Part shown: positions 13,206 to 24,737 of the stretch, in pieces
Layout: every line of letters starts with the position of its first letter
Position numbering within the stretch: position 1 is the first letter of the stretch
Origin: Roseofilum capinflatum BLCC-M114
GTDB taxonomy: Bacteria; Cyanobacteriota; Cyanobacteriia; Cyanobacteriales; Desertifilaceae
NCBI RefSeq assembly: GCF_030068505.1
Contig: NZ_JAQOSO010000015.1
Location: 1-64,000 of the forward strand
DNA: 64,000 bases
Direction: 5' to 3'
Notes under the pieces: model-generated
The model's database searches: none
What the model saw: the letters and a program-made list of their open reading frames with translations, nothing else
Told to the model about the DNA's origin: nothing
Translations under genes and position numbers: made by a program

Positions 13206-13263
13206 GATCGCCGGTACGGTACAATAAAGAAATATGCTTGTTAACCTTGTCGAAACCGTTCCC

Positions 13264-16200
13264 ATGAATAGTGCTTTCCTGAACCGCCTACAGAGTCCAG
13301 AACGTCCCGTCATCGTCTTTGATGGCGCGATGGGAACCAACCTCCAAGTTCAGAACTTAACCGCAGAGGACTTTGGAGGCCCAGAATATGAAGGGTGTAA
13401 TGAATATTTAATCAAAACCAAACCAGAGGCGATCGCCAAAGTTCACCGTGATTTCCTCAGTGCCGGATGTGATGTGATTGAAACCGATACCTTTGGGGCA
13501 GCCTCCATCGTCCTCGCTGAATATGACCTAGCCGACCAAGCCTACGAACTCAACAAAGCCGCCGCAGAACTGGCTAAAAGCATCACCGCCGAATTTTCCA
13601 CCCCAGAAAAACCCCGGTTTGTCGCCGGTGCGATCGGGCCAACCACTAAACTACCTACATTAGGTCATATTAATTTTGATGCCCTAGAAGCCGCCTTTAC
13701 CGAACAAGCCGAAGGACTCTATGACGGAGGCGTAGACCTCTTTATTATTGAAACTTGTCAAGACGTTCTGCAAATAAAAGCCGCATTAAACGCCGTAGAA
13801 AAAGTCTTTGAACGCCAAGGAGAACGCCGCCCGATCATGGTTTCCATCACCATGGAAGTCATGGGAACTATGCTCGTTGGTTCCGAAATTGGAGCCGCTT
13901 TAACCATTCTTGAACCCTACAATATTGATATTTTAGGCTTAAACTGCGCCACCGGCCCCGATCGCATGGCCGAGCATATTAAATATCTTTGCGAGCATTC
14001 CCCCTTCACCGTCTCCTGCATTCCCAACGCCGGATTACCCGAAAATGTCGGCGGTCATGCCCATTACAAACTCACCCCCATGGAATTACGCATGGCCCTC
14101 AATCGGTTTGTGGAAGATTGGGGCGTGCAAATCATTGGCGGATGCTGTGGAACCCGTCCCGATCATATTCAACAATTAGCCGAAATTGCCGCTACCCTCA
14201 AACCCAAAGAACGCCACCCCGTCTTTGAACCAGCAGCCGCATCCATCTATAGCCCTCAACCCTACCATCAAGATAATTCCTTCCTCATTGTCGGCGAAAG
14301 ACTCAACGCCAGTGGCTCCAAAAAATGCCGCAACCTACTCAATAAAGAAGACTGGGATGGCTTAGTTTCTCTAGGTAAAGCCCAAGTCAAAGAAGGGGCC
14401 CATATTTTAGATGTGAACGTCGATTATGTGGGTCGGGATGGAGTGCGAGATATGAACGAACTCGCCTCTCGTTTAGTCAACAACATGACCCTGCCCTTAA
14501 TGTTAGATTCCACCGAGTGGGAAAAAATGGAAGCCGGGTTAAAAGTGGTGGGCGGAAAATGTATCCTTAATTCCACCAACTACGAAGATGGAGAACCCCG
14601 GTTTTTGAAAGTCTTAGAACTGGCGAAAAAATACGGCGCGGGTGTGGTTGTGGGAACCATTGATGAGGATGGCATGGCGCGAACGGCCGATAAAAAGTTT
14701 GAGATTGCTAAACGGGCTTATGACCAGGCAATTGAATATGGAATTCCTGCCCATGAAATATTCTTTGATACTCTAGCACTGCCTATTTCTACCGGGATTG
14801 AAGAAGACCGAGAAAACGGAAAAGCAACCATAGAATCGATTCGTCGCATTCGCGAAGAATTGCCAGAGTGTCATATTATGCTTGGTGTTTCCAATATTTC
14901 CTTCGGCTTAAATGCAGCAGCGCGGATTGTTCTCAACTCCATGTTCTTGCACGAAGCCATGCAAGCAGGATTAGATAGCGCCATTGTCAGCGCCAACAAG
15001 ATTTTACCCCTAGCCAAAATTGAACCCGAACATCAAGAAGTCTGTCGCAAACTGATCTACGATCAACGGGAATTTGATGGCGAAATTTGCACCTACGATC
15101 CCCTGGCAGAATTGACTAAACTGTTTGAAGGGAAGAAAGCGAAGCGCGATCGTTCGGGTGATGAAAATCTGCCCATTAACGAGCGCCTCAAAAACCATAT
15201 TATCGACGGCGAGCGTATTGGTTTAGAAGACTCCTTGAAAAAGGCCTTAGAAGAGTATCCACCCCTAGAAATTATTAACGTCTTCCTACTCGATGGCATG
15301 AAAGTAGTTGGGGACTTATTCGGTTCCGGACAGATGCAACTTCCCTTTGTGTTGCAATCAGCCGAAACAATGAAAGCGGCAGTCGCCTATCTAGAACCGT
15401 TCATGGAAAAATCAGAATCGGGCAACAATGCCAAAGGAATCTTTGTGATTGCCACAGTGAAAGGAGATGTCCATGATATTGGTAAAAATTTAGTCGATAT
15501 CATCCTGTCCAATAACGGCTACAAAGTGGTTAACTTGGGCATTAAACAACCCGTCGATAATATTATTGATGCCTATCGCGAGCATAACGCCGACTGTATC
15601 GCCATGAGTGGCTTGCTGGTGAAATCGACAGCGTTTATGAAGGATAATTTGGAAACCTTTAATGAGCAAGGAATTAGCGTGCCGGTGATTTTGGGGGGAG
15701 CCGCTCTAACGCCCAAGTTTGTCTATCAGGATTGTCAAAATGCCTATAAAGGTCGAGTGATTTACGGGAAAGATGCTTTTTCTGACTTGACGTTTATGGA
15801 TAAGTTGATGCCTGCGAAAGCGGCGAATAATTGGGATGATTTCCAAGGCTTTTTGGATGAAGTAGACAATAATGGAAACGGCCATGTTGAAGTCGAGGAT
15901 AAGGGAGAAGACACAGGAACAGAATCCAAGTCCTCGGAACCAGAGGTGATTGATACTCGGCGATCGGAAGCCGTAGAAATTGATATTCCTCGTCCCACTC
16001 CTCCCTTCTGGGGCAGTCGGATTTTGCAACCGGAAGATATTCCTTTAGAAGAGGTTTTCTGGTATTTAGATTTGCAAGCGCTGTTTGTGGGGCAATGGCA
16101 ATTCCGCAAGCCGAAAGATAAATCTCGTGAAGAATATGACGAGTTCTTGCAAGAGACGGTGCATCCCATCTTAGAGGAATGGAAAGAGAAGATTTTAACG

Positions 16201-16809
16201 GAAAATATCTTGAAGCCCCAAGCGCTTTATGGTTATTTCCCGGCTCAGTCGGAAGGGAATACGGTGTTTGTTTATGATGCTGAGGAGATGAACGGGGGAA
16301 TGGCGAAAACGGTGAAATATACCTTTGAGTTTCCGCGCCAAAAACGCTCCCGTCGCTTGTGTATTGCGGATTTCTTTGCGCCGAAGGAGAGCGGGGTGAT
16401 GGATGTGTTCCCGATGCACGCGGTAACGGTGGGAGAAGTAGCGACGGAATACGCGCAGAAGTTGTTTGCAGGCGATCGCTATACAGACTATCTTTATTTC
16501 CATGGTATGGCGGTGCAAACCGCCGAAGCAATGGCGGAATGGTTGCACGCCAAAATTCGCCGCGAATTAGGCTTTGGGGATGAAGAACCGGATAATGTGC
16601 GTGATATGTTCAAACAGCGCTATCACGGTTCCCGCTATAGTTTCGGCTATCCCGCTTGTCCGAATATGGAAGACCAGTATAAGCAATTGGAGCTGCTGGG
16701 GAGCGATCGCATTAATATGTACATGGACGAGAGCGAGCAAATCTATCCCGAACAATCCACCAGCGCCATTATCACCCACCATCCCGTCTCCAAATACTTC
16801 AGCCCATAA
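13264..16809 (+). CDS. metH: Cobalamin-dependent methionine synthase
   Basis: About 1181 residues from ATG 13264; an in-frame ATG at 13234 is possible, but it would lie only about 10 bases after the TACAAT box. All modules are present in order: homocysteine-binding barrel with zinc Cys residues (L-N-C-A-T-G-P and G-G-C-C-G-T-R-P), pterin-binding barrel, B12 cap, B12-binding domain with the base-off motif [10 protein letters not shown], an acidic linker, and the reactivation domain with [10 protein letters not shown]. It makes methionine from homocysteine and methyl-tetrahydrofolate in the cytoplasm. Proximity to cobS links B12 supply to its main consumer. A stem-loop follows the stop. Confidence 0.98.
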
Positions 16810-16829
16810 GCCAGTTTGACCTCCTTCTC

Positions 16830-16852
16830 ACAAGGGGCTTGTGGCCCCTTGT
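16830..16852 (+). terminator. Stem-loop after metH, possible terminator
   Basis: ACAAGGGGC (16830-16838) pairs with GCCCCTTGT (16844-16852) around a five-base loop. There is no long T run, so it may be factor-dependent or only a repeat. Confidence 0.5.
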
Positions 16853-16925
16853 CGCTTGTTCAAGGAGCGAATAGTCATTCTAATTAAGGTTGATACACCA
16901 AGATCTATCTACAACAACGGTATCT

Positions 16926-16953
16926 GTAGGGGCGAACGGCCGTTCGCCCCTAC
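16926..16953. repeat. 28-bp perfect palindrome (dispersed cyanobacterial repeat)
   Basis: GTAGGGGCGAACGG is followed immediately by its exact complement CCGTTCGCCCCTAC. It is a known type of widespread cyanobacterial palindrome and lies in the 371-base spacer between metH and the GTPase island. Confidence 0.85.
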
Positions 16954-17064
16954 AATTGATGTATCGAGGCTCCATATTTTTCATATGCACCGGCTTATGG
17001 TCATTTTAAGGGGATTTTAAGGATTGTTAATGTTACCTTTCAATCCAGACAGGGGATAAAATGC

Positions 17065-17094
17065 TTGACACCGGTCTAGAATTACAAGTATACT
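17065..17094 (+). promoter_or_regulatory. Sigma70-type promoter of the GTPase island
   Basis: TTGACA at 17065-17070 and TATACT at 17089-17094 are separated by 18 bases. Transcription would begin near 17101, giving an 80-base leader before the ATG at 17181. Confidence 0.7.
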
Positions 17095-17161
17095 TGGAAA
17101 CAGAACAAAATTAATTCTTAAATATCACACTTATAACTAAGCTCACAAGTTGACCCAATGC

Positions 17162-17178
17162 TTTCACTTTTGGTGAAA
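17162..17178 (+). promoter_or_regulatory. Hairpin covering the ribosome-binding site of the first island gene
   Basis: TTTCAC (17162-17167) pairs with GTGAAA (17173-17178) across TTTTG. The only SD-like GGTGA lies in the 3' arm, five bases before the ATG at 17181, so the stem could limit translation. Confidence 0.45.
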
Positions 17179-17180
17179 CC

Positions 17181-17570
17181 ATGAGTAAAGACGAAATCAA
17201 AAAAGAAGTAGTTAGTGGCGTATCAAATGGTGTTGCTTCAGGAATAGCAGCAGCAGTAGCAACTGGCATAGGTGGTATGGTCATGTCTAATCTTAGTAAC
17301 TCTCTGAACAATCTGACAGATGAATTGAAGCGTCATCGTCGTCGGGCCCCTTTGGAATTAGATGGGGATTATGATCCTTCTTATGATGATAATCCTGATG
17401 ATGTGGGCCAGGATGCCTTTGAGCCTGAACCTCCAGAGCCTGAACCTCCAGAACCTGAGCCTCCAGAACCTGAGCCTCCAGATGAAGATAATTTCTGTGA
17501 GAATGCCTTTGAAGATCCTTGTGACGAGGAATTCGATGGCGATTTTGATGGTGATTGTGATTTTGATTGA
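17181..17570 (+). CDS. Small Gly-zipper/acidic-tail protein, first gene of the GTPase island
   Basis: 129 residues with two distinct halves. Residues about 10-38 form a small-residue hydrophobic helix (V-A-S-G-I-A-A-A-V-A-T-G-I-G-G-M-V), suited to membrane insertion or helix packing. It is followed by an Asn/Leu helix and the basic K-R-H-R-R-R. The second half is strongly acidic, with four PEPPE-type repeats encoded by a 15-bp tandem repeat (17421-17480) and a D/F-rich end with four Cys. I recognise no family. It is the promoter-proximal gene of a run ending in two GTPases, so a regulatory or membrane-adaptor role is possible but unproven. Confidence 0.7.
   Translation: MSKDEIKKEVVSGVSNGVASGIAAAVATGIGGMVMSNLSNSLNNLTDELKRHRRRAPLELDGDYDPSYDDNPDDVGQDAFEPEPPEPEPPEPEPPEPEPPDEDNFCENAFEDPCDEEFDGDFDGDCDFD
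17421..17480 (+). repeat. 15-bp tandem repeat (four units) encoding E-P-E-P-P
   Basis: Units start at 17421, 17436, 17451 and 17466; the first two and last two are identical pairs. The tract lies in frame inside the acidic tail and can change length without frameshift. Confidence 0.85.
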
Positions 17571-17603
17571 TTAAAGTAGATATACTACCTTGTGGTATTA
17601 ATT

Positions 17604-18863
17604 ATGCCGTTACCTTGGGTCATCGCTGCTACTGGCACTTTTGTTGCGATAACTGCTAGTAGAATCATATCAATTGTTGCGGGAAGAAAATTTGCTGAGA
17701 AATCTGCCTCTAAACGGAGAAGCGTATCTGCTCAGAAGAGTGAAAAAGTGAGCCAGGCTGAATCTGAGTATTTCAAGCGCAAGAACCAAAGGGAAGAGGA
17801 ATTGGCCAATATTGAGGCTGATCTTGCTAATATGCGAGAGACCGAGATTTTAGCTAATATTGAAATTGCCAAGGCAGAGGCAGATAGAGAAGAACGTTTC
17901 TTGGGAATTTCTAACAAAAATTTGCAATTGAGAAAGCAAGAATTGGCTCTATTAAAAGCCCGACTTAAAGAAGATATCAAACACTCGGAAGCACAAAGAG
18001 AACAAATGGAATGCTCTCTCAAGCTTCGACAAAGGGAAGTTGAGTTGATGGAGGAAGATATCCGCGAAAGACAAAAACTGAGTTACTTGTATCTTGATGC
18101 TCAAAGAACCCATAATGCTAATCAAGTTATCCTGAAGCTCACTGAACTTCAGTCCAACTGGGATCGGGAAAACTGGGCAGGAATTATCAGTCGAGAAGAG
18201 ATGAAAAGGCTTCTCGTCGAATCGCAAAGTAAACATCGTTTACTGATCATGATTTCTCCACCTGATATTGCTGATTCCTTGGAATTCAACACTCATTTAC
18301 AAAAGCAAGTGAGGAGTGAGGTAAAAGAGTTTCTTGAACAGAACTACCCCCTGCATGAAGATCTCTGTCCTGTGGAATACTATGGGAAATTCTTTAAGAG
18401 TTCTATTTTTGATGCTGAAGTCAAACAACTGGAATCCGACTTAGAACCTATACCAACTCTAGTGATCTACAGTGACGTGACTGACGAAAAAGTTTACTTT
18501 CATGTCTACTTCTGGGGATTAGAAGAGACTCTACCCCTAACCTTTCCCTGGAACTGGCAGGAAGAGTATCAGAAGTTGATAGCACAAGGTGTCAGTCAAG
18601 AAAACAGCCTAATGGCGATTCGTCAATCAATTGTAACAATTCATCAACTAATAGCTGCATTTTTGGCGGATCTATATTACCTTAGTATTAATCCACTACA
18701 TCAACCACGGTTATTTGAGATGGATACGGATCTTCCTATAGAGTGGATCGAAAGTAACTTTGGCATACTCAGGGAAGTTCAACAACAGAAACTCAAGGAG
18801 TATGAAGAAGAGCAGAAGTTAATTGAGCAAGAGAATCAAATTATTAAACGCTTTGCGTATTAG
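17604..18863 (+). CDS. Membrane-anchored coiled-coil protein of the GTPase island
   Basis: About 419 residues from ATG 17604 (GTG 17592 is an alternative). An N-terminal hydrophobic helix (about residues 4-28) is followed by a basic patch and a long charged coiled coil (about 45-180, rich in E-x-x-x-R/K heptads). A globular C-terminal region of about 220 residues contains W-D-R-E-N-W-A-G-I-I-S, L-I-M-I-S-P-P-D-I and a low-similarity F-P-W-N-W-Q-E-E-Y segment. I recognise no named domain. The layout fits a membrane scaffold with a cytoplasmic recognition domain. It starts 33 bases after the acidic protein and ends 41 bases before the first GTPase, so the three are likely cotranscribed. Confidence 0.75.
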   Translation: MPLPWVIAATGTFVAITASRIISIVAGRKFAEKSASKRRSVSAQKSEKVSQAESEYFKRKNQREEELANIEADLANMRETEILANIEIAKAEADREERFLGISNKNLQLRKQELALLKARLKEDIKHSEAQREQMECSLKLRQREVELMEEDIRERQKLSYLYLDAQRTHNANQVILKLTELQSNWDRENWAGIISREEMKRLLVESQSKHRLLIMISPPDIADSLEFNTHLQKQVRSEVKEFLEQNYPLHEDLCPVEYYGKFFKSSIFDAEVKQLESDLEPIPTLVIYSDVTDEKVYFHVYFWGLEETLPLTFPWNWQEEYQKLIAQGVSQENSLMAIRQSIVTIHQLIAAFLADLYYLSINPLHQPRLFEMDTDLPIEWIESNFGILREVQQQKLKEYEEEQKLIEQENQIIKRFAY

Positions 18864-18904
18864 TCAAAAACAGATCGAGTCATACCATAACTATGGAGTG
18901 TTCT

Positions 18905-20791
18905 ATGTCTTCTAATTCATTACAAAAACTTAGAGTTTTATTCTATGATCGCCCTGAAGTTTTGAAAATGTTGGATTTTCGAGAACTCGATTTATCTAGT
19001 TTAGAAGAAGCAGCTTATCTTCAAGAACAAAAGAACAGAAAGTTATATCCAGAGCCTGTTAACTTTTACGCGACAGGCCGTACTGGAGCGGGAAAAACTT
19101 CATTAGGGAATGCTTTACTCGATCCAGGATCGGGCAAACCTCCAATGGAATCTCATGGTCATCAAGATTGCACAAGCAGTATACAATATTTTAAGCTACA
19201 GAGTAATTTGCGTTACTTTGATTTACCAGGAGCTGGCAGCAGCGAAGAGTATGAAAATATCAATCGGGCATCGTTACTTGTAGAGCAGCTTGATGATGAA
19301 GATGACGAAATGTACCCCGTTGATGAATTTAAAGTTTTAGATTTCTCTGAATATGAGACTCAAGGTGTTCAAGAAGAAGTCATCACAGTCGAGCAATGGC
19401 AATCCAGTGGAAATCAACAGTTTGTTGCCGCAGATATCATTTTGTACGTGGTTGCTCCCCATATGCTGTTTACTCGTGATGATCAAAAATACTTAAAGCA
19501 ATTACTAAAATCCCAAAAGCAGCGATCTCAAAATCCAATCGTTATATTTGCTTTAAACATTCATCGGACTAAAGAGGGCCAAATCAAGCCAACATCGGAA
19601 AATCTAGAAGATGCACGTAAATTAATTACACAGATTTATCAAAAATTCTATCCCAATATCAGCCCTCCAATCGTTGAAATCGACTCTAGAACTGGAGCAG
19701 GAATTAATCAGATTACTGAGATTATCTGTCAAATTTTGCCATCAGAGAAGATTGGCAACATGCAACAAGCACTTAAGAAAGAACTGAAGGAGTATGCCAA
19801 AAAAGAGCGTAGCTACCGCTATCGGGAAGCCTTGCTTCATATTGCCAGTCGTTTAGCAACTGTTGTGGTCGATCAAAAATTAGGTGACCAAGGTTTAATC
19901 AATGAAGCATATATGGCTGTAACTGATTACGCCATTCGAGTATTCAGAGAAGAGCAGGCTGTTCTCGAAGCACAGCAAGAATTTGATGATGCTATTAATC
20001 AATTTGCTGAAAGTGCTAAGGTCTCGCGACAAGAAGCTGAAACAATTTTGGTTGAGCATCAGTGGGTTCAAATGCGAGACCAAGAAGTAGAGAAGACTGA
20101 CTATGTACCAGACATCCAAGATGTAGATGTTCAGCAACAAATTGTAGATTATGTAGACTCCCAAGAATCTAGAAAAGAACTTGTTGATGGAGGCCGATCT
20201 CCCGGTCGTATTGCTGGCGGTGCTGCTGTTGGAGGTCTGGCTGGTTTAGGAGGGTTTGTTCTTGGTTTAACGGGTGTACTTGCAACTGGTGCAACAGTAG
20301 CAACTGGTGGATTAGCAGCTCCTCTTGCTGCTGCCGTACTTGGAGGAGCTGTAACAGGTGGAGTCAGGGGTACAAAAAAACGCAAGAAAGAAGTTACTGT
20401 CACTGAAGATGTGATTAAACCTGTAGTCAAGACTATTACAGTAACGGAAAAGCGGTTAGTTGGAATGAAAGAAGTGAAGAAAACAGTCACTGAAAAAGTT
20501 CCCGAAGTGATGAGAGAGCAGCGAGAGCAAGCGACCGGGAATATTAAATATCTGCAAGGAGGTTATCCTGTTGTTGAGAATTTACTGGCTATTGGGTTAG
20601 GGATTGAAAAAGCCGATTCAAGTGTAGACTTAAAAGCAGATTTTGCATCAGTTGTGAACAAGGGTCGTCAAGAAGTCCAAGGTATTCTACAACCCTATTT
20701 AGAACAAATCAATGATTTTGCAGTCAATTCGGATCGCAAATATGCAGAAGAAAAAATTATGGGTATTTTACAAGCAGTTTTTCTCAATTGA
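18905..20791 (+). CDS. Dynamin/IRG-like P-loop GTPase with Gly-rich membrane hairpin (GTPase 1)
   Basis: About 628 residues from ATG 18905, favoured over ATG 18893 because GGAG lies six bases upstream. G1 is G-R-T-G-A-G-K-T-S-L (58-67), a switch-I-like H-Q-D-C-T lies at 86-90, G3 is D-L-P-G-A (106-110), and the G4 position reads A-L-N-I-H-R-T-K-E, not NKxD. A G5-like R-T-G-A-G-I follows. Residues about 430-490 are a Gly/Ala-rich double hydrophobic helix ending in K-K-R-K-K, flanked by Val/Thr/Lys-rich stretches. This resembles bacterial membrane-active GTPases near the Era/IRG/dynamin-like groups. No characterised subfamily is recognised. It pairs with the second GTPase at 21499. Confidence 0.8.
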   Translation: MSSNSLQKLRVLFYDRPEVLKMLDFRELDLSSLEEAAYLQEQKNRKLYPEPVNFYATGRTGAGKTSLGNALLDPGSGKPPMESHGHQDCTSSIQYFKLQSNLRYFDLPGAGSSEEYENINRASLLVEQLDDEDDEMYPVDEFKVLDFSEYETQGVQEEVITVEQWQSSGNQQFVAADIILYVVAPHMLFTRDDQKYLKQLLKSQKQRSQNPIVIFALNIHRTKEGQIKPTSENLEDARKLITQIYQKFYPNISPPIVEIDSRTGAGINQITEIICQILPSEKIGNMQQALKKELKEYAKKERSYRYREALLHIASRLATVVVDQKLGDQGLINEAYMAVTDYAIRVFREEQAVLEAQQEFDDAINQFAESAKVSRQEAETILVEHQWVQMRDQEVEKTDYVPDIQDVDVQQQIVDYVDSQESRKELVDGGRSPGRIAGGAAVGGLAGLGGFVLGLTGVLATGATVATGGLAAPLAAAVLGGAVTGGVRGTKKRKKEVTVTEDVIKPVVKTITVTEKRLVGMKEVKKTVTEKVPEVMREQREQATGNIKYLQGGYPVVENLLAIGLGIEKADSSVDLKADFASVVNKGRQEVQGILQPYLEQINDFAVNSDRKYAEEKIMGILQAVFLN

Positions 20792-20841
20792 TTTGAGTGA
20801 ATTGGCGGCTAAATAAACCTAGAGAGGTTAAGAGGTGAGTT

Positions 20842-21039
20842 GTGAAAGGGTATGTACAAGGCAGAACAATTATTCTTTTAGAAACGTTACCTGGAGCAAT
20901 TAAAGATGGGGATGAAGTGGAGATTACCATTACTCCACTTCGTCAGGAGGATTATCCATTCCCTACTTTTGAACTAGGGGTAAAAGACCAATATATTAGT
21001 CGGGAAAACATTTATGAACAAACCCAGGATATTTTTTGA
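20842..21039 (+). CDS. Antitoxin-like protein of the embedded VapBC pair
   Basis: 65 residues from GTG 20842, with GAGG about 10 bases upstream. The N-terminal half (V-Q-G-R-T-I-I-L-L-E-T-L-P, then D-G-D-E-V-E-I-T-I-T) looks like the short beta-rich DNA-binding fold of cyanobacterial VapB-type antitoxins of about 65-80 residues. The C-terminal tail (Y-I-S-R-E-N-I-Y-E-Q-T-Q-D-I-F) would bind the toxin. The PIN gene starts inside its last 26 bases. It lies between two GTPase genes, 50 bases after GTPase 1. Confidence 0.7.
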   Translation: MKGYVQGRTIILLETLPGAIKDGDEVEITITPLRQEDYPFPTFELGVKDQYISRENIYEQTQDIF

Positions 21040-21478
21040 TACTAATGTATTGGTTTATGCTCACGATCGCACTTCAACGTACCATACTGACTCCGCTACC
21101 CTACTCAAGATGGCAGTAGAACAGAATATTCAGGGAGTCTTAGCAGAACAAAATCTGATTGAACTCTATAGGATTTTAACCAATCCTACCGCAATGAGAG
21201 GAAAAGAGTTAACACCACAACAAGTGAATAGCTTAGTCAGAACTACTTATTTAAATGGCTTGTTTCAAGTGGTCTATCCCATCCCCATAACTCTCGATAA
21301 GGTATTAAGTTTGGCGACGAGTCATAATATTACCTCAGCAAGAATTTTCGATATTCGTCTAGCTGCATTAATTTTAGAATCAAATATTGACTATTTTGCC
21401 ACTTATAACCTCAGTGACTTTCAAAGTATCCCAGATGTAAATCCCTTTACTCCAGCAAACATCATCAAGATTATTTAA
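21014..21478 (+). CDS. VapC-like PIN-domain toxin embedded in the GTPase island
   Basis: 154 residues. PIN residues are D9 in F-F-D-T-N, E50 in L-I-E-L-Y-R, D113 in I-F-D-I-R-L-A-A and D135 in N-L-S-D-F, the layout of Mg-dependent toxin RNases. It overlaps the antitoxin by 26 bases and ends 20 bases before GTPase 2, so all four could share a transcript. It is unrelated in sequence to the other PIN toxin at 4496. It may stabilise the island, act as an effector, or be a chance insertion. Confidence 0.85.
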   Translation: MNKPRIFFDTNVLVYAHDRTSTYHTDSATLLKMAVEQNIQGVLAEQNLIELYRILTNPTAMRGKELTPQQVNSLVRTTYLNGLFQVVYPIPITLDKVLSLATSHNITSARIFDIRLAALILESNIDYFATYNLSDFQSIPDVNPFTPANIIKII

Positions 21479-21498
21479 CCTTAGCTAATTAGAAACCG

Positions 21499-23817
21499 AT
21501 GTACTTTCAACTCACTCCTCCATCTATCTCCAAAATTCGGGCAAAATTTATTATCGAGAAACTGAGGAACTTCCCTCAGAGTCTGGGTTCAATCAATATC
21601 TTTGCCACGGGAAGAACTCATAGCGGTAAAACTACTCTCGGAAACCGTTTACTAGGGATTGATTATTTTTTATCAACAGGTCGTCAAGATTGTACCAAAG
21701 AAATTAATCTGATTGAATTTCCCATTGGATTAAAATACTTCGATCTTCCTGGAGTCTGTAGTGATGATTTTCTGGAAAACTACAATCGAGTTGCTTTTGG
21801 GATGTCGCAAATTGAGGATTTCCCATGGGTTGATGAAGTTACTTTGGCAAAATTCAAGGAAAATCAAGCACCTTCCGAACAAAAATTAAGCATTAGTGAC
21901 TATGATAATTTAGGATTTCAACCTGATCTGGTGTATTACTTAATTGCTCCAGACAAGCAGTTTGCGAGAGGAGATAAAAAATATCTCAAAGATTTATTGA
22001 GACGGAATCAAAATATTATCTACGTCTTCAATATGTTTGTCAATAAGCAAACAGGAGTGAGTTATTCAGCGACTGAAGCTAATATTACTGATGCAACAAT
22101 TCAAATCCTCAAAGTTCATAATTCAATTTTAGGAGAAGAGCGCAAACCGGTAATAGTAGGTGTCAATTGTTGGACGGGTGAAGGGATATCGGAATTACTC
22201 CATCAATCTCAACTGATGCTATCTGGGGAAAAAGGGAGTGTTTTTGAAGATCTGATTCAGTATCAACGGGAAAAAACACCGGATGAATATGTGAAGCAGG
22301 TAAAGGAGGAACTCATTCGATTATATGCTCATACGGCCTGCCAAAGAGCCATAGGAACTGATACTTGCGATCAACCTTTACACGAAATCTGTTATACACT
22401 TTTTGATTTCCTCTGTAGCTTACCGATTCAAACTGAGCAAGTCGGTGACTCGATTTCTGAAAAAGTTAACACGATTGTCCAGCAGGTTTTTGCGAATCCG
22501 ATTGAACAGATAGCTACCGAATCTTTAGGTGATAAAGTAAATTATGTGATTCAAGCAAGCAACTATATTCTCAATCAAAGTATTGAGTCTTTTAACGAGT
22601 TGATAAAAACTTACATTTCTGACATTCAGGAACAAGCTTATGAAATGAGCAATACAGAAATGGAACAATGGTCACGAGATAAAGAGAACTACAGTAATCA
22701 ATTATCCCAGAAATGGGATGCAATTTTATCAGTAGATCAAGAAATCAGTCGATTGAAGGATGTTATTACTTCTCAAGAGAGCCAACTTGAATACCTTGCT
22801 AATGATTTTAGTTCTTATGTTGAAAAACATAAAAAACTCTCTTTTGAAATATCCTCCCGTCGTCAAAGACTAAATTCTAGAATTGAGAGATTTAACGAGC
22901 GAATGAATCGATATAATAATAATGTTGATAAAATCAATCGTAGTTCAGCTAGACTAACTTATGATGCTGAACAGTCAATAAAAGAAGAAGAAAAGAACTT
23001 GCGAAGAGAAAAAGAATCTATACTAAATGAAGATCGGTGTATAGATGAGTTAATTGTAAAGTACGAAAAGCACGGTAAAAAAGTTAATCAAAAGAAAGAA
23101 GAAGCTGAACATAAAATAGCAGAAAATAATTACTCTGTTGAAAATCATGATCGCAAGATTGAAGAACTGAGAAATAAACTCAAAGAGCGTAATAAATTCA
23201 AGAAAGAAGCTCAAGATGAGATCAACTTCTGGTTCGAGCTAATTAAGGCTTTCCAAGGTGAATTATCATCTTTTGATGATAAGGTTAACACTCGAATAGA
23301 AGAAATGAATCATCATCTTCGAGAAATTAGAATTCGCCTTTCAGAAAACTACCTGGAAAAATTTGAATCTGTGGAAGATGGGATTAATGAGCTACAAGAA
23401 GTTATCAACACCTGTATCGATGAGATGGGTATATTTGAAAACCAAATATTTGAATTTTCTCAAGAGATTAATAAAATAATTTTCAGGCTCAATATCAATA
23501 AAATGGTCACTCAAGTGCTGCAAAAAACAACAGAGCATTATTTTGATCAAGCTGGTGAATTTGAATATCGAGGCAGCCATTACCATTATTTCCGACAACA
23601 TGGTATAGCCATCTCCCTTGCTCTGACAACGATGACTCTTGTTGGTTTAGAAGAAGACTACGAAGTGTTTTATAACACTTTATTACAAAAAGTTGAACGT
23701 TTAGGTTATTTTCCCGATGATCCGGTGGAAAGCAATATCTTGGCCTTACTGGAGTCAAATCTTGATTCGCTCTTTGACTCCAGTTGGGAACAAGCAATCC
23801 GAAAAGCAGTGTCCTGA
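21499..23817 (+). CDS. P-loop GTPase with long coiled coil (GTPase 2)
   Basis: 772 residues. G1 is G-R-T-H-S-G-K-T-T-L (38-47), a switch-I-like R-Q-D-C-T lies at about 62-66, and G3 is D-L-P-G-V (82-86). At the G4 place stands V-F-N-M-F-V-N-K, not NKxD, and a G5-like W-T-G-E-G-I follows. Residues about 370-640 form a long charged coiled coil (R/E/K/N-rich), then a C-terminal region with H-Y-F-D-Q, H-Y-H-Y-F-R-Q-H and a hydrophobic A-I-S-L-A-L-T-T-M-T-L-V. The motifs shared with GTPase 1 (QDCT, FDLPG, TGxGI) show common origin, but the bodies differ. Paired GTPases with a coiled coil recall dynamin-like heteromers. No known family is recognised. Confidence 0.8.
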   Translation: MYFQLTPPSISKIRAKFIIEKLRNFPQSLGSINIFATGRTHSGKTTLGNRLLGIDYFLSTGRQDCTKEINLIEFPIGLKYFDLPGVCSDDFLENYNRVAFGMSQIEDFPWVDEVTLAKFKENQAPSEQKLSISDYDNLGFQPDLVYYLIAPDKQFARGDKKYLKDLLRRNQNIIYVFNMFVNKQTGVSYSATEANITDATIQILKVHNSILGEERKPVIVGVNCWTGEGISELLHQSQLMLSGEKGSVFEDLIQYQREKTPDEYVKQVKEELIRLYAHTACQRAIGTDTCDQPLHEICYTLFDFLCSLPIQTEQVGDSISEKVNTIVQQVFANPIEQIATESLGDKVNYVIQASNYILNQSIESFNELIKTYISDIQEQAYEMSNTEMEQWSRDKENYSNQLSQKWDAILSVDQEISRLKDVITSQESQLEYLANDFSSYVEKHKKLSFEISSRRQRLNSRIERFNERMNRYNNNVDKINRSSARLTYDAEQSIKEEEKNLRREKESILNEDRCIDELIVKYEKHGKKVNQKKEEAEHKIAENNYSVENHDRKIEELRNKLKERNKFKKEAQDEINFWFELIKAFQGELSSFDDKVNTRIEEMNHHLREIRIRLSENYLEKFESVEDGINELQEVINTCIDEMGIFENQIFEFSQEINKIIFRLNINKMVTQVLQKTTEHYFDQAGEFEYRGSHYHYFRQHGIAISLALTTMTLVGLEEDYEVFYNTLLQKVERLGYFPDDPVESNILALLESNLDSLFDSSWEQAIRKAVS

Positions 23818-23892
23818 TAATCAGTTATGATAAATCCTTGGCAAGGGTAACGAATGTGAAGACAAAAACTAGACTAATGAAACCAAGAAATC

Positions 23893-24174
23893 ATGATATC
23901 ATCCAATTCTACCCTACCCCCTTTAAACGCTTTACCCGCTTCCCTACCCCTAGAGGGAGCCATCCGAATTGAGTTACAATCTGGAATTCCTATTTTTAGA
24001 GCGTCAGGAAATGTACAATCTCGGATCGAGAGTCTCTTAGATAAGCAAATGTTTGAAGGTTTAACTGAGTTAGAGGAACAGGAGTTAGATGCTTATGAAG
24101 AAGTTGATGATTATTTGAGCTTTGTGAATCGCACAATTCGCAATCTGGCGCTGTCTTCTAGTCCTCAATCTTAA
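23893..24174 (+). CDS. Conserved cyanobacterial protein that normally precedes an HNH nuclease gene
   Basis: 93 residues. It matches a widespread small cyanobacterial protein with I-R-I-E-L-Q-S-G-I-P-I-F-R-A-S, then E-L-E-E-Q-E-L-D-A-Y-E-E-V-D-D-Y-L-S-F-V-N-R-T. The pattern is seen in genes placed directly before an HNH endonuclease starting M-S-R-x-W-I-S-E. Here that partner is broken (24184-24243). It is 75 bases after GTPase 2. It may be an antitoxin-like protein; this is inferred only from pairing. Confidence 0.6.
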   Translation: MISSNSTLPPLNALPASLPLEGAIRIELQSGIPIFRASGNVQSRIESLLDKQMFEGLTELEEQELDAYEEVDDYLSFVNRTIRNLALSSSPQS

Positions 24175-24183
24175 AAGTTGATC

Positions 24184-24243
24184 ATGTCTCGTCCTTGGAT
24201 TTCTGAACAGACACAGGCGGAAGTTAGACAAACCAGTTTCTAA
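24184..24243 (+). pseudogene. Remnant of an HNH endonuclease gene (19 codons)
   Basis: ATG at 24184 encodes M-S-R-P-W-I-S-E-Q-T-Q-A-E-V-R-Q and then diverges and stops at TAA 24241. The start is that of the HNH nuclease usually found after the 23893-type gene, where it continues R-A-x-x-R-C-E-Y-C. The nuclease body is missing, so the partner has been lost. Confidence 0.5.
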
Positions 24244-24285
24244 TAACTTCGTTATAATAGCATCAACCCTTACCTTATCCTGAAT

Positions 24286-24636
24286 ATGACCTTCACCACA
24301 GACAACCCCGTAACTTGGCAATATCTGGAAATTGACGCTCAAAGTCGGGCAAAAATTGCTAATAGTCGCGTTTTCGTTTCCCAACTGATTCAAGAAAAAC
24401 ACGCCCACGGTTGGAGTCCTGAAGAACTGCATTTTCAACATCCTGAAATTTCCCTTGCTGCTATTTACTCTGCCCTCAGCTATTACTACACCTATCAATC
24501 CCAAATTGATGCCCAAATTGCTCAAGAACAGCAGACTATTCAAGCGTTGCAAGCTGAGTTAATTCAAAGGGGAGTCGGTCATTATAGCTCCAATTTTAAA
24601 CAAAAGCTTCAGACAAAACGGGGACAGCAGGGATAA
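24286..24636 (+). CDS. DUF433 family antitoxin-like protein
   Basis: 116 residues. The core Q-L-I-Q-E-K-H-A-H-G-W-S-P-E-E-L-H-F and P-E-I-S-L-A-A-I-Y-S-A-L-S-Y-Y-Y is the DUF433 winged-helix pattern seen in VapB45-like antitoxins. Residues after 75 form a Gln-rich helix. DUF433 genes usually precede a DUF5615 PIN-like toxin starting M-x-I-R. Here only a 32-codon ORF starting M-A-I-R-R-L-Y-F follows (24639-24737), so the toxin seems to be lost. Confidence 0.75.
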   Translation: MTFTTDNPVTWQYLEIDAQSRAKIANSRVFVSQLIQEKHAHGWSPEELHFQHPEISLAAIYSALSYYYTYQSQIDAQIAQEQQTIQALQAELIQRGVGHYSSNFKQKLQTKRGQQG

Positions 24637-24638
24637 AA

Positions 24639-24737
24639 ATGGCCATTCGTAGACTTTACTTTACCTTAAACAGACCTTTACCAAAAATCTGGGTCAAATG
24701 GGGTAGCTTGGAGTTGAAGGTAACGTTAGTTAGTTGA
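24639..24737 (+). pseudogene. Possible remnant of a DUF5615-type PIN toxin start
   Basis: The ORF begins two bases after the DUF433 stop, where the toxin should begin. It reads M-A-I-R-R-L-Y-F then loses all resemblance and ends in TGA at 24735. No other gene lies before 24835. Confidence 0.3.

What the first reader, a model, noticed from the sequence alone, without database searches (positions are those of the whole stretch)
17043..23817. Two-GTPase membrane system: candidate undescribed system
A consensus promoter leads into a Gly-zipper/acidic protein, a membrane-anchored coiled-coil protein and two P-loop GTPases. The GTPases share G-R-T-x-x-G-K-T, Q-D-C-T, F-D-L-P-G and T-G-x-G-I motifs, lack a clear NKxD, and differ in their bodies: one has a Gly-rich membrane hairpin, the other a long coiled coil. 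This looks like a paired dynamin/IRG-like machine. Role (membrane remodelling, defence or envelope stress) is inference.
Basis: partly seen in the sequence, partly recalled or inferred. Interest (0 to 1): 0.8.

Follow-up and report, generated by a model that had tools for sequence, protein, structure and literature searches.

The report
Paired IRG-like GTPases in defence hotspot
A cyanobacterium carries, at a chromosomal spot where two sister species carry other immune-type genes, a low-GC cluster encoding two adjacent related GTPases whose predicted shapes resemble animal immunity GTPases and bacterial dynamins; it is likely an undescribed antiviral system that would act by remodelling or breaking the cell membrane.

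Summary
The conserved core is the pair: F follows C in 20 of 25 loci, and both profiles hit the same 18 of 388 genomes. It is sporadic (1 of 6 genomes of its genus) and lies in a 7-kb low-GC stretch after metH; there one sister species has an NB-ARC gene plus a PIN pair, another a GmrSD-Schlafen gene, a third ordinary-looking genes. A proteobacterial C lies between two PD-T4-4-like defence ATPases. The adaptor domain of B recurs in 76 of 388 genomes, 71 of them without the GTPases; nine scanned carry WD40 (6), FGE-sulfatase (1) or AIG1-GTPase (2) domains. The window's C and F match no DO-GTPase, IRG or dynamin model over cut-off; by predicted fold C is nearest Irga6 and F nearest BDLP. Most likely a modular counter-invader system in the style of Kaur et al. 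2020 but with another GTPase family. Context supports defence; membrane action is inference.

The parts
17065..17094 (+). promoter-like site TTGACA-18-TATACT
   Evidence: 11 of 12 consensus positions; number of sites not above shuffles
17181..17570 (+). A: small acidic protein (129 aa; the part shared with homologues, a NL..LN.LTDELKRHRR-like start plus an Asp/Cys-rich tail, begins about Met35, 17283)
   Evidence: homologues just upstream of B in L010, L011, L130, L131
17592..18863 (+). B: coiled-coil adaptor with N-terminal hydrophobic segment and conserved C-terminal domain; likely start ATG 17604 (419 aa)
   Evidence: profile match to upstream genes of other loci E 1.8e-9
18893..20791 (+). 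C: GTPase 1 (632 aa, or 628 aa from 18905): G domain, helical region, predicted long beta ribbon
20228..20353 (+). Gly-rich hydrophobic tip segment of C (hydropathy peaks 1.82 and 1.72)
   Evidence: lineage-specific
20842..21039 (+). D: antitoxin-like small ORF overlapping E
   Evidence: no Pfam family over cut-off; antitoxin role inferred from position
21014..21478 (+). E: PIN-domain (VapC-like) ORF
   Evidence: PF01850 32.5 bits, cut-off 23.6; TIGR00028 53.9 bits, below its cut-off 73.6
21499..23817 (+). F: GTPase 2 (772 aa)
22525..23337 (+). long antiparallel coiled coil of F (residues 343-613)
   Evidence: pLDDT blocks 75-97
16812..23864 (.). variable insert at the metH-downstream site, GC 0.385 against 0.466 (sd 0.020, minimum 0.432) in 87 windows of the same size in the rest of the window
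13234..16809 (+). left flank, metH, matched in all 6 genomes of the genus held
23893..24174 (+). right flank ORF; 23865-24231 is 98% identical in sister genome G213

Best explanation
The cluster, which holds two adjacent paralogous GTPases (C and F) and sits at a site where two sister species hold other immune-type genes, is likely a modular counter-invader system in which A and B would sense or relay infection at the membrane and C and F would then co-assemble and remodel or rupture that membrane. Shown: the pairing, paralogy, sporadic presence in a low-GC stretch, site sharing with NB-ARC and GmrSD-Schlafen genes, and reuse of the B domain with other modules. Predicted: G-domain fold, long ribbon of C, coiled coil of F. 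Inferred: B as membrane-anchored adaptor; nucleotide-driven hetero-assembly of C and F, as in the Cj-DLP1/2 pair; the Gly-rich tip of C as the membrane-contacting part; the coiled coil of F as lever or tether; the antiviral outcome (lysis control or cell death). The PIN pair between C and F would be an exchangeable back-up that arrests or kills the cell if the system is lost or attacked.
For: F lies next downstream of C on the same strand in 20 of 25 loci, and both profiles match the same 18 of 388 genomes (the profiles cross-match, and in the loci read a true F is present in 16 of the 18). Partly congruent C and F trees: 38 pairs, Mantel r 0.59, 0 of 5000 permutations as high; 10 splits with support of 0.9 or more shared out of 23 in each tree. 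Sporadic: 1 of 6 congeneric genomes, 2 of 61 of the Planktothrix/Okeania family. Low GC. Same site in sisters: G213 NB-ARC plus PIN pair, G426 GmrSD_N-SLFN_AlbA_2 (NsnA 4.6e-28). Parabeggiatoa C (L017) between two PD-T4-4_A-like ATPases (1.4e-101 and 7e-143). Modules typical of published conflict systems: GUN4 and TPR on F of L009, kinase plus pentapeptide on C of L024, Hsp70-TPR gene after F in L014, B with WD40, FGE-sulfatase or AIG1 GTPase. Folds. Precedents: DynA delays phage lysis (PMC8844932, abstract); Cj-DLP pair tethers liposomes (PMC6104087, passages).
Against: No experiment. PADLOC, Pfam and NCBIfam name no system here. No relative of C in the phage or plasmid records, nor of C or F in viral contigs, so mobility is inferred. 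Of five sister genomes three were readable at the site, and one of these (G437) has ordinary-looking genes there (judged by eye). L017 and L025 (proteobacterial MAGs of unstated completeness) have C without F, so C may act alone; L028 has only a truncated C. The 25 loci are not independent (three Moorena, two Microcystis). C and F exchange partners: 13 of 23 well-supported C splits are not supported in the F tree, and L016 has F 69% but C 45% identical to the window's; shared descent of the hosts also raises the correlation. Whole-chain matches to IRG and dynamin structures have rmsd of 16-58 angstrom; only the G domains superpose well. The models rest on 28-row alignments. The tip of C is low-confidence and not conserved. 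G4 lacks its Lys and, but for one row, its Asp, so GTP specificity is open.
Confidence: 0.45

Rival explanations
1. Counter-invader system in which C and F are a non-membrane nucleotide switch: they set a threshold and hand on the signal to a variable effector (kinase, GUN4 module, Hsp70, or here the PIN RNase E), as Kaur et al. propose for DO-GTPases.
For: Variable modules fused or linked to C, F and B; mutually unrelated PIN pairs in the C-F gap of the 3 loci with A3-type B (window, L010, L011) and a PIN gene in none of the other 17 C-F gaps; F has no hydrophobic segment.
Against: PIN pairs are absent from most loci; many loci show only the two GTPases; the Gly-rich segment of C and the hydrophobic N-terminus of B suggest membrane contact.
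Confidence: 0.25
2. Housekeeping membrane remodelling or envelope-stress system of cyanobacteria (dynamin-like, thylakoid or septum related), not immunity.
For: Dynamin-family fold neighbours of F; up to 8 putative dynamin-like proteins in some cyanobacteria (PMC6104087, passage); a dynamin-family gene beside C in L026.
Against: Present in 18 of 388 genomes of the order and 1 of 6 of the genus; low-GC stretch at a site with exchangeable cargo.
Confidence: 0.13
3. The cluster is a passenger: a mobile island kept by the VapBC-like pair, with GTPases of unrelated function.
For: PIN pair inside the cluster; 44 PIN stretches in this genome; a PIN pair also at this site in G213.
Against: 17 of 20 C-F loci have no PIN gene in the gap and still keep the pair.
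Confidence: 0.07
4. A counter-defence or lysis-control device of a mobile element rather than host immunity.
For: Weak Phage_holin_3_6 similarity of the Gly-rich part of C (E 0.0056, under cut-off; 5 of 28 rows at E<=0.01).
Against: No relative of C in 50,697 phage and 72,556 plasmid records, nor of C or F in viral contigs, at the sensitivity used.
Confidence: 0.05

Closest known systems
DO-GTPase (double-GTPase) conflict systems, Kaur et al. 2020 (PMC7159879: abstract, outline, passages, sections 27, 31, 33, 34 seen)
   Same: tandem paralogous TRAFAC GTPases, mobile gene neighbourhoods, linked Hsp70 and variable modules, proposed switch role
   Different: no match of C or F to DO-GTPase models, hhalign E 0.1 and 0.65, no Glu after G3 in 56 rows, no GAP1 found; cyanobacterial, where the paper says DO-GTPase systems are nearly absent
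Immunity-related GTPases (IRG; Irga6/IIGP1)
   Same: first Foldseek matches of C; profile of C finds IRG chains in the PDB at E 0.001-0.006 over G1-G3; helices before and after the G domain
   Different: no IIGP model match in the window's proteins; NKxD degenerate; ribbon or coiled-coil insert; tandem bacterial genes
Bacterial dynamin-like proteins (BDLP, IniA, Cj-DLP1/2, LeoABC, DynA)
   Same: often side-by-side GTPase pairs with a long body (PMC6104087, passages); fold neighbours of F; DynA acts against phage (PMC8844932, abstract)
   Different: no Dynamin_N match over cut-off in C or F; bodies predicted as beta ribbon and antiparallel coiled coil; poor whole-chain superposition
AIG1/GIMAP GTPases
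   Same: B proteins of L130 and L131 carry an AIG1-type GTPase domain over cut-off, next to an A gene
   Different: AIG1 is not listed for the window's C or F; only 3 of 28 C rows at E<=0.01, best 0.0011

Membership tests
DO-GTPase systems (Kaur 2020) | adjacent paralogous TRAFAC GTPases (38% of systems in the paper) | tested here: met
DO-GTPase systems (Kaur 2020) | membership in the DO-GTPase sequence family | tested here: not met
   no DO-GTPase model at E<=1 for C or F, none among 28 C rows at E<=0.01, hhalign against two DO-GTPase2 proteins E 0.1 and 0.65 (only two sequences). The AIG1-type GTPases of L130 and L131 match DO-GTPase2 at E 0.002 and 0.007, under cut-off
DO-GTPase systems (Kaur 2020) | conserved glutamate in Walker B; I take it as the Glu after DxxG that the two DO-GTPase2 proteins show | tested here: not met
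   Glu after D-x-P-G in 0 of 28 C and 0 of 28 F rows
DO-GTPase systems (Kaur 2020) | GAP1 partner | tested here: not met
   no GAP1 model listed for seven window proteins at E<=1
IRG (PF05049) | IIGP profile match | tested here: not met
   not listed for C or F at E<=1 nor for any of 28 C rows at E<=0.01. Against this: L022 C at E 0.0085, under cut-off, and one of 115 C hits (P0071) bears a precomputed PF05049 label
IRG (PF05049) | IRG fold (G domain plus bipartite helical domain) | tested here: inconclusive
   Irga6 first Foldseek hit of C, E 4.7e-6, but TMt 0.35 and rmsd 17; IRGs not among the listed VIA rows
IRG (PF05049) | G4 T/NKxD (recalled as an IRG and general GTPase feature) | tested here: not met
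   Lys in 0 of 56 rows; Asp in 0 of 28 F and 1 of 28 C rows
Dynamin superfamily (PF00350) | Dynamin_N profile match | tested here: not met
   F E 0.82, under cut-off; 1 of 28 C rows at E<=0.01, E 1.2e-4; one F hit (P0196) bears a precomputed PF00350 label
Dynamin superfamily (PF00350) | helical trunk with membrane-binding paddle | tested here: inconclusive
   BDLP first hit of F, E 4.4e-5, rmsd 53
Dynamin superfamily (PF00350) | nucleotide-dependent assembly on membranes | not testable with these tools
   needs protein
LeoBC (PADLOC) | match over most of the profile | tested here: not met
   22 of 28 C rows match at E<=1e-3, but in the window's C (E 8.3e-12) the best of two stretches covers positions 84-140 of 601
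AIG1/GIMAP (PF04548) | AIG1 profile over cut-off | tested here: not met
   not listed for C or F of the window; 3 of 28 C rows at E<=0.01, best 0.0011; one F hit (P0118) bears a precomputed label
VapBC toxin-antitoxin (genes D, E) | PIN domain over cut-off behind a small overlapping ORF | tested here: met
VapBC toxin-antitoxin (genes D, E) | recognised VapB-type antitoxin family for D | tested here: not met
   no antitoxin family for D in Pfam, PADLOC or NCBIfam
VapBC toxin-antitoxin (genes D, E) | RNase toxicity neutralised by D | not testable with these tools
   needs experiment

The most novel reading that the evidence does not exclude
A prokaryotic counterpart of IRG immunity: a heterotypic pair of IRG-like GTPases, one with a beta-ribbon membrane probe and one with a coiled-coil arm of some 200 angstrom, is the membrane-attacking output of a plug-in immune platform (A-B) that in other cyanobacteria is wired to AIG1 GTPases, WD40 propellers or FGE-type lectin-fold domains, with interchangeable toxin-antitoxin cassettes guarding the pair.
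Probability: 0.3. Interest if true: 0.85.

Novelty: new variant of a known kind. Interest (0 to 1): 0.62.

Why it matters
If true, it adds a further kind of paired-GTPase immunity in bacteria, beside DO-GTPase systems and dynamin-like anti-phage proteins, in a phylum where DO-GTPase systems are reported to be nearly absent, and gives a testable link between bacterial conflict systems and the IRG and GIMAP GTPases of animal cell-autonomous immunity. The B domain, seen in 76 of 388 sampled genomes of this order and without a Pfam family, would become a handle for finding further immune modules.

Tried and rejected
Chance adjacency of C and F: rejected by 20 of 25 loci and shared genomes. Profile hits of F to myosin, SMC, apolipoprotein, ZorA, JetC and others: taken as coiled-coil composition and set aside. 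Phage_holin_3_6, NheB and MakA-like similarity of the Gly-rich part of C: weak, set aside. LeoBC: chiefly the G1-G3 stretch. The Cas12f PADLOC hit of an L012 gene: the same protein is an IS605 OrfB with a Cas12f1-like TNB domain by Pfam, so a TnpB-type transposon gene. B against the upstream genes of L014/L016: hhalign E 0.087 with B and 5.9e-4 with the L009/L025 group, so that link is tentative. PDB search with B: nothing at E<=0.1. VIA-align lists G-domain neighbours; the absence of IRG rows there is no evidence. Phage and plasmid searches with C and viral-contig scans with C and F gave no relative. Loci of the 25 without a C-F pair: L024 (two C-type GTPases in tandem), L027 (contig end), L028 (truncated C), L017 and L025 (C only). 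Of 10 B proteins in the nine loci fetched nine were scanned; the nine loci were chosen by me from the list, not drawn at random.

Literature: searches of the held open-access library; in their listings and in what I read I found no description of this GTPase pair or of the B domain. Preprints and most subscription papers are not held, and supplementary files were not read. Seen: PMC7159879 abstract, outline, passages and sections 27, 31, 33, 34; PMC8195603 passages; PMC8844932 abstract and outline; PMC6104087 passages including the abstract; PMC4159319 listing and start of abstract; the rest listings only.
Full report
What is there. The stretch 17043-23817 holds six plus-strand ORFs that I take as genes, not four: A (small acidic protein), B (coiled coil with a hydrophobic N-terminus), C (GTPase 1), D and E (a small ORF overlapping a PIN-domain ORF), and F (GTPase 2). 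The motifs claimed are real. In 28 rows of each family, chosen by me from the hits: G1 GRTxxGKT in 28/28 F and 22/28 C; a G2-region QDCT in 28/28 F and DCT in 27/28 C; G3 DxPG in 28/28 of both; G5 with TGEGI in most F and GxG in C. The G4 Asn is kept in 28/28 of both, but Lys is absent in all 56 rows and Asp in all but one (P0113, NDWD), so nucleotide specificity is open.

The pair is the conserved unit. I read 25 loci: the window, the 20, and four further genomes fetched (the other fetched stretches repeat loci, as their contig lengths show). F is the next GTPase downstream of C on the same strand in 20. The five others: tandem C-C (L024), contig end (L027), truncated C (L028), and two proteobacterial MAGs with C alone (L017, L025; one match each in the whole genome). 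In L026 F is broken into three frames and in L079 it is short (349 aa). The loci are not independent (three Moorena, two Microcystis). In one sample of 388 genomes of the order the C and F profiles match the same 18; the profiles cross-match, and by the loci read 16 of the 18 have a true F. The F profile matches 6 of 386 genomes drawn from the phylum. In 38 C-F protein pairs that I matched by equal contig lengths, tree distances correlate (Mantel r 0.59, 0 of 5000 permutations as high), but only 10 splits with support of 0.9 or more are shared, of 23 in each tree. The partners co-evolve loosely and are sometimes exchanged: L016 has F 69% but C 45% identical to the window's.

The upstream partner. 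B-like genes lie upstream of, or fused to, C in 10 of 25 loci, in three groups: A3-type (window, L010, L011), A4-type (L014, L016, and a 248-aa ORF in L077) and A5-type (L009, L022, L023, L025); 70-aa remnants remain in L012 and L013 (several of these are the very sequences the A4 and A5 profiles were built from). A3 and A5 are related over the C-terminal domain (hhalign E 1.8e-9), A5 and A4 at E 5.9e-4, A3 and A4 directly not significantly (E 0.087). The B (A3) profile matches 76 of the 388 genomes at E<=1e-8; 5 of these also have C, 3 of them next to it. Of the other B proteins nine, chosen by me, were scanned: six have WD40 domains, one an FGE-sulfatase domain, and two (L130, L131) an AIG1-type GTPase over Pfam's cut-off; the protein search lists GUN4 and Clp_N labels too (precomputed). 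L130 and L131 also have an A gene just upstream, and the gene divergent from A in L131 is an NB-ARC-type ATPase. So A-B looks like a separable platform that is joined to C-F in this window.

Location. The insert 16812-23864 has GC 0.385, below all 87 windows of equal size in the rest of the window (mean 0.466, sd 0.020, minimum 0.432). metH is matched in all 6 genomes of the genus, the GTPases in 1 of the 6. In sister genome G213 metH and 23865-24231 (98% identical) enclose 3.9 kb with an NB-ARC protein and a PIN/DUF2281 pair; in G426 metH and 24230-24646 (91%) enclose a GmrSD_N-SLFN_AlbA_2 protein (NsnA 4.6e-28); in G437 ordinary-looking genes follow metH (by eye); in G460 and G414 the contig ends too soon. 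A relative of C in Parabeggiatoa, itself broken into two frames, lies between two ATPases matching PD-T4-4_A at 1.4e-101 and 7e-143. These are the best reasons for a defence role.

The toxin-antitoxin slot. The C-F gap holds a small ORF plus a PIN gene in the window, L010 and L011, the three loci with A3-type B. None of the other 17 C-F loci has a PIN gene there: most gaps are under 230 bases, L015 has a NUDIX gene and L026 a 147-aa ORF not scanned. The three toxins are not detectably related to one another (blastp, best E 0.34). PIN stretches number 44, 19 and 16 in the three genomes (the last is 73% complete), so placement in the same gap looks more than chance; but the three loci are related and the window's own was the starting point, so I call it suggestive.

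Mechanism. The most likely reading is a counter-invader system in which A-B senses or relays at the membrane and licenses C-F to assemble and act on that membrane. Membrane action rests on the hydrophobic segments of B and C, on fold resemblance to IRG and dynamin-like proteins, and on precedents (DynA and phage lysis, PMC8844932, abstract; Cj-DLP pair, PMC6104087, passages); it is inference. The main rival is a switch that hands the signal to other effectors, as Kaur et al. propose for DO-GTPases (PMC7159879, section 27 and passages).

Membership. DO-GTPase: pairing met; sequence family, G3 glutamate and GAP1 not met. IRG: profile and G4 not met in the window, fold inconclusive; one hit (P0071) bears a precomputed IIGP label. 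Dynamin: profile not met, fold inconclusive. LeoBC: chiefly the P-loop region. It may work like these but is not shown to be a member of any. Novelty: a new variant of a known kind (NTPase-centred modular conflict systems), with a GTPase pair and an adaptor domain of which searches gave no description.

Noticed in passing
L130:6206-9251 and L131:6669-9707: A-B module with an AIG1/GIMAP-type GTPase fused to B, divergent from a neighbouring gene (NB-ARC-type in L131; the L130 neighbour looks alike but was not scanned): a second GTPase wired to the same platform.
   Followed up: partly
76 of 388 genomes of the order: The B domain is widespread; the nine proteins scanned carry WD40, FGE-sulfatase or AIG1 domains behind it, and it has no Pfam family of its own in these scans.
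   Followed up: partly
L017:8071-13299: C-type GTPase (broken into two frames) between two PD-T4-4_A-like ATPases in Candidatus Parabeggiatoa.
   Followed up: partly
L141:169-463: A partial second copy of the metH 3' end (94% over 296 bases) beyond the defence-type insert in G426, as if the site recombines at metH.
   Followed up: no
L014:6641-8377 and L014:14289-18595: Hsp70-TPR gene directly after F, then a His/Asp-rich protein with a cysteine-peptidase-like pattern (by eye) and a weak beta-flower match; a similar protein lies upstream of B.
   Followed up: no
L026:7403-9904: A dynamin-family protein (PF00350, 9.8e-17) directly upstream of C in Richelia.
   Followed up: no
window 17181-17570, L010, L011, L130, L131: A proteins end in Asp/Cys-rich tails with DxDxDG-like runs, possibly metal binding; L009 and L022 have His-rich small proteins in the same place.
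   Followed up: partly
window 24231: Right flank is a mosaic: 23865-24231 matches G213 at 98%, 24230-24646 matches G426 at 91%; an HNH gene of G213 appears cut here.
   Followed up: no
L016:2-1615: metH also lies about 8 kb upstream of the pair in this genome of another family; whether the site is the same was not tested.
   Followed up: no
L012:7838-8968: IS605 OrfB/TnpB-type gene near the pair in Moorena.
   Followed up: no
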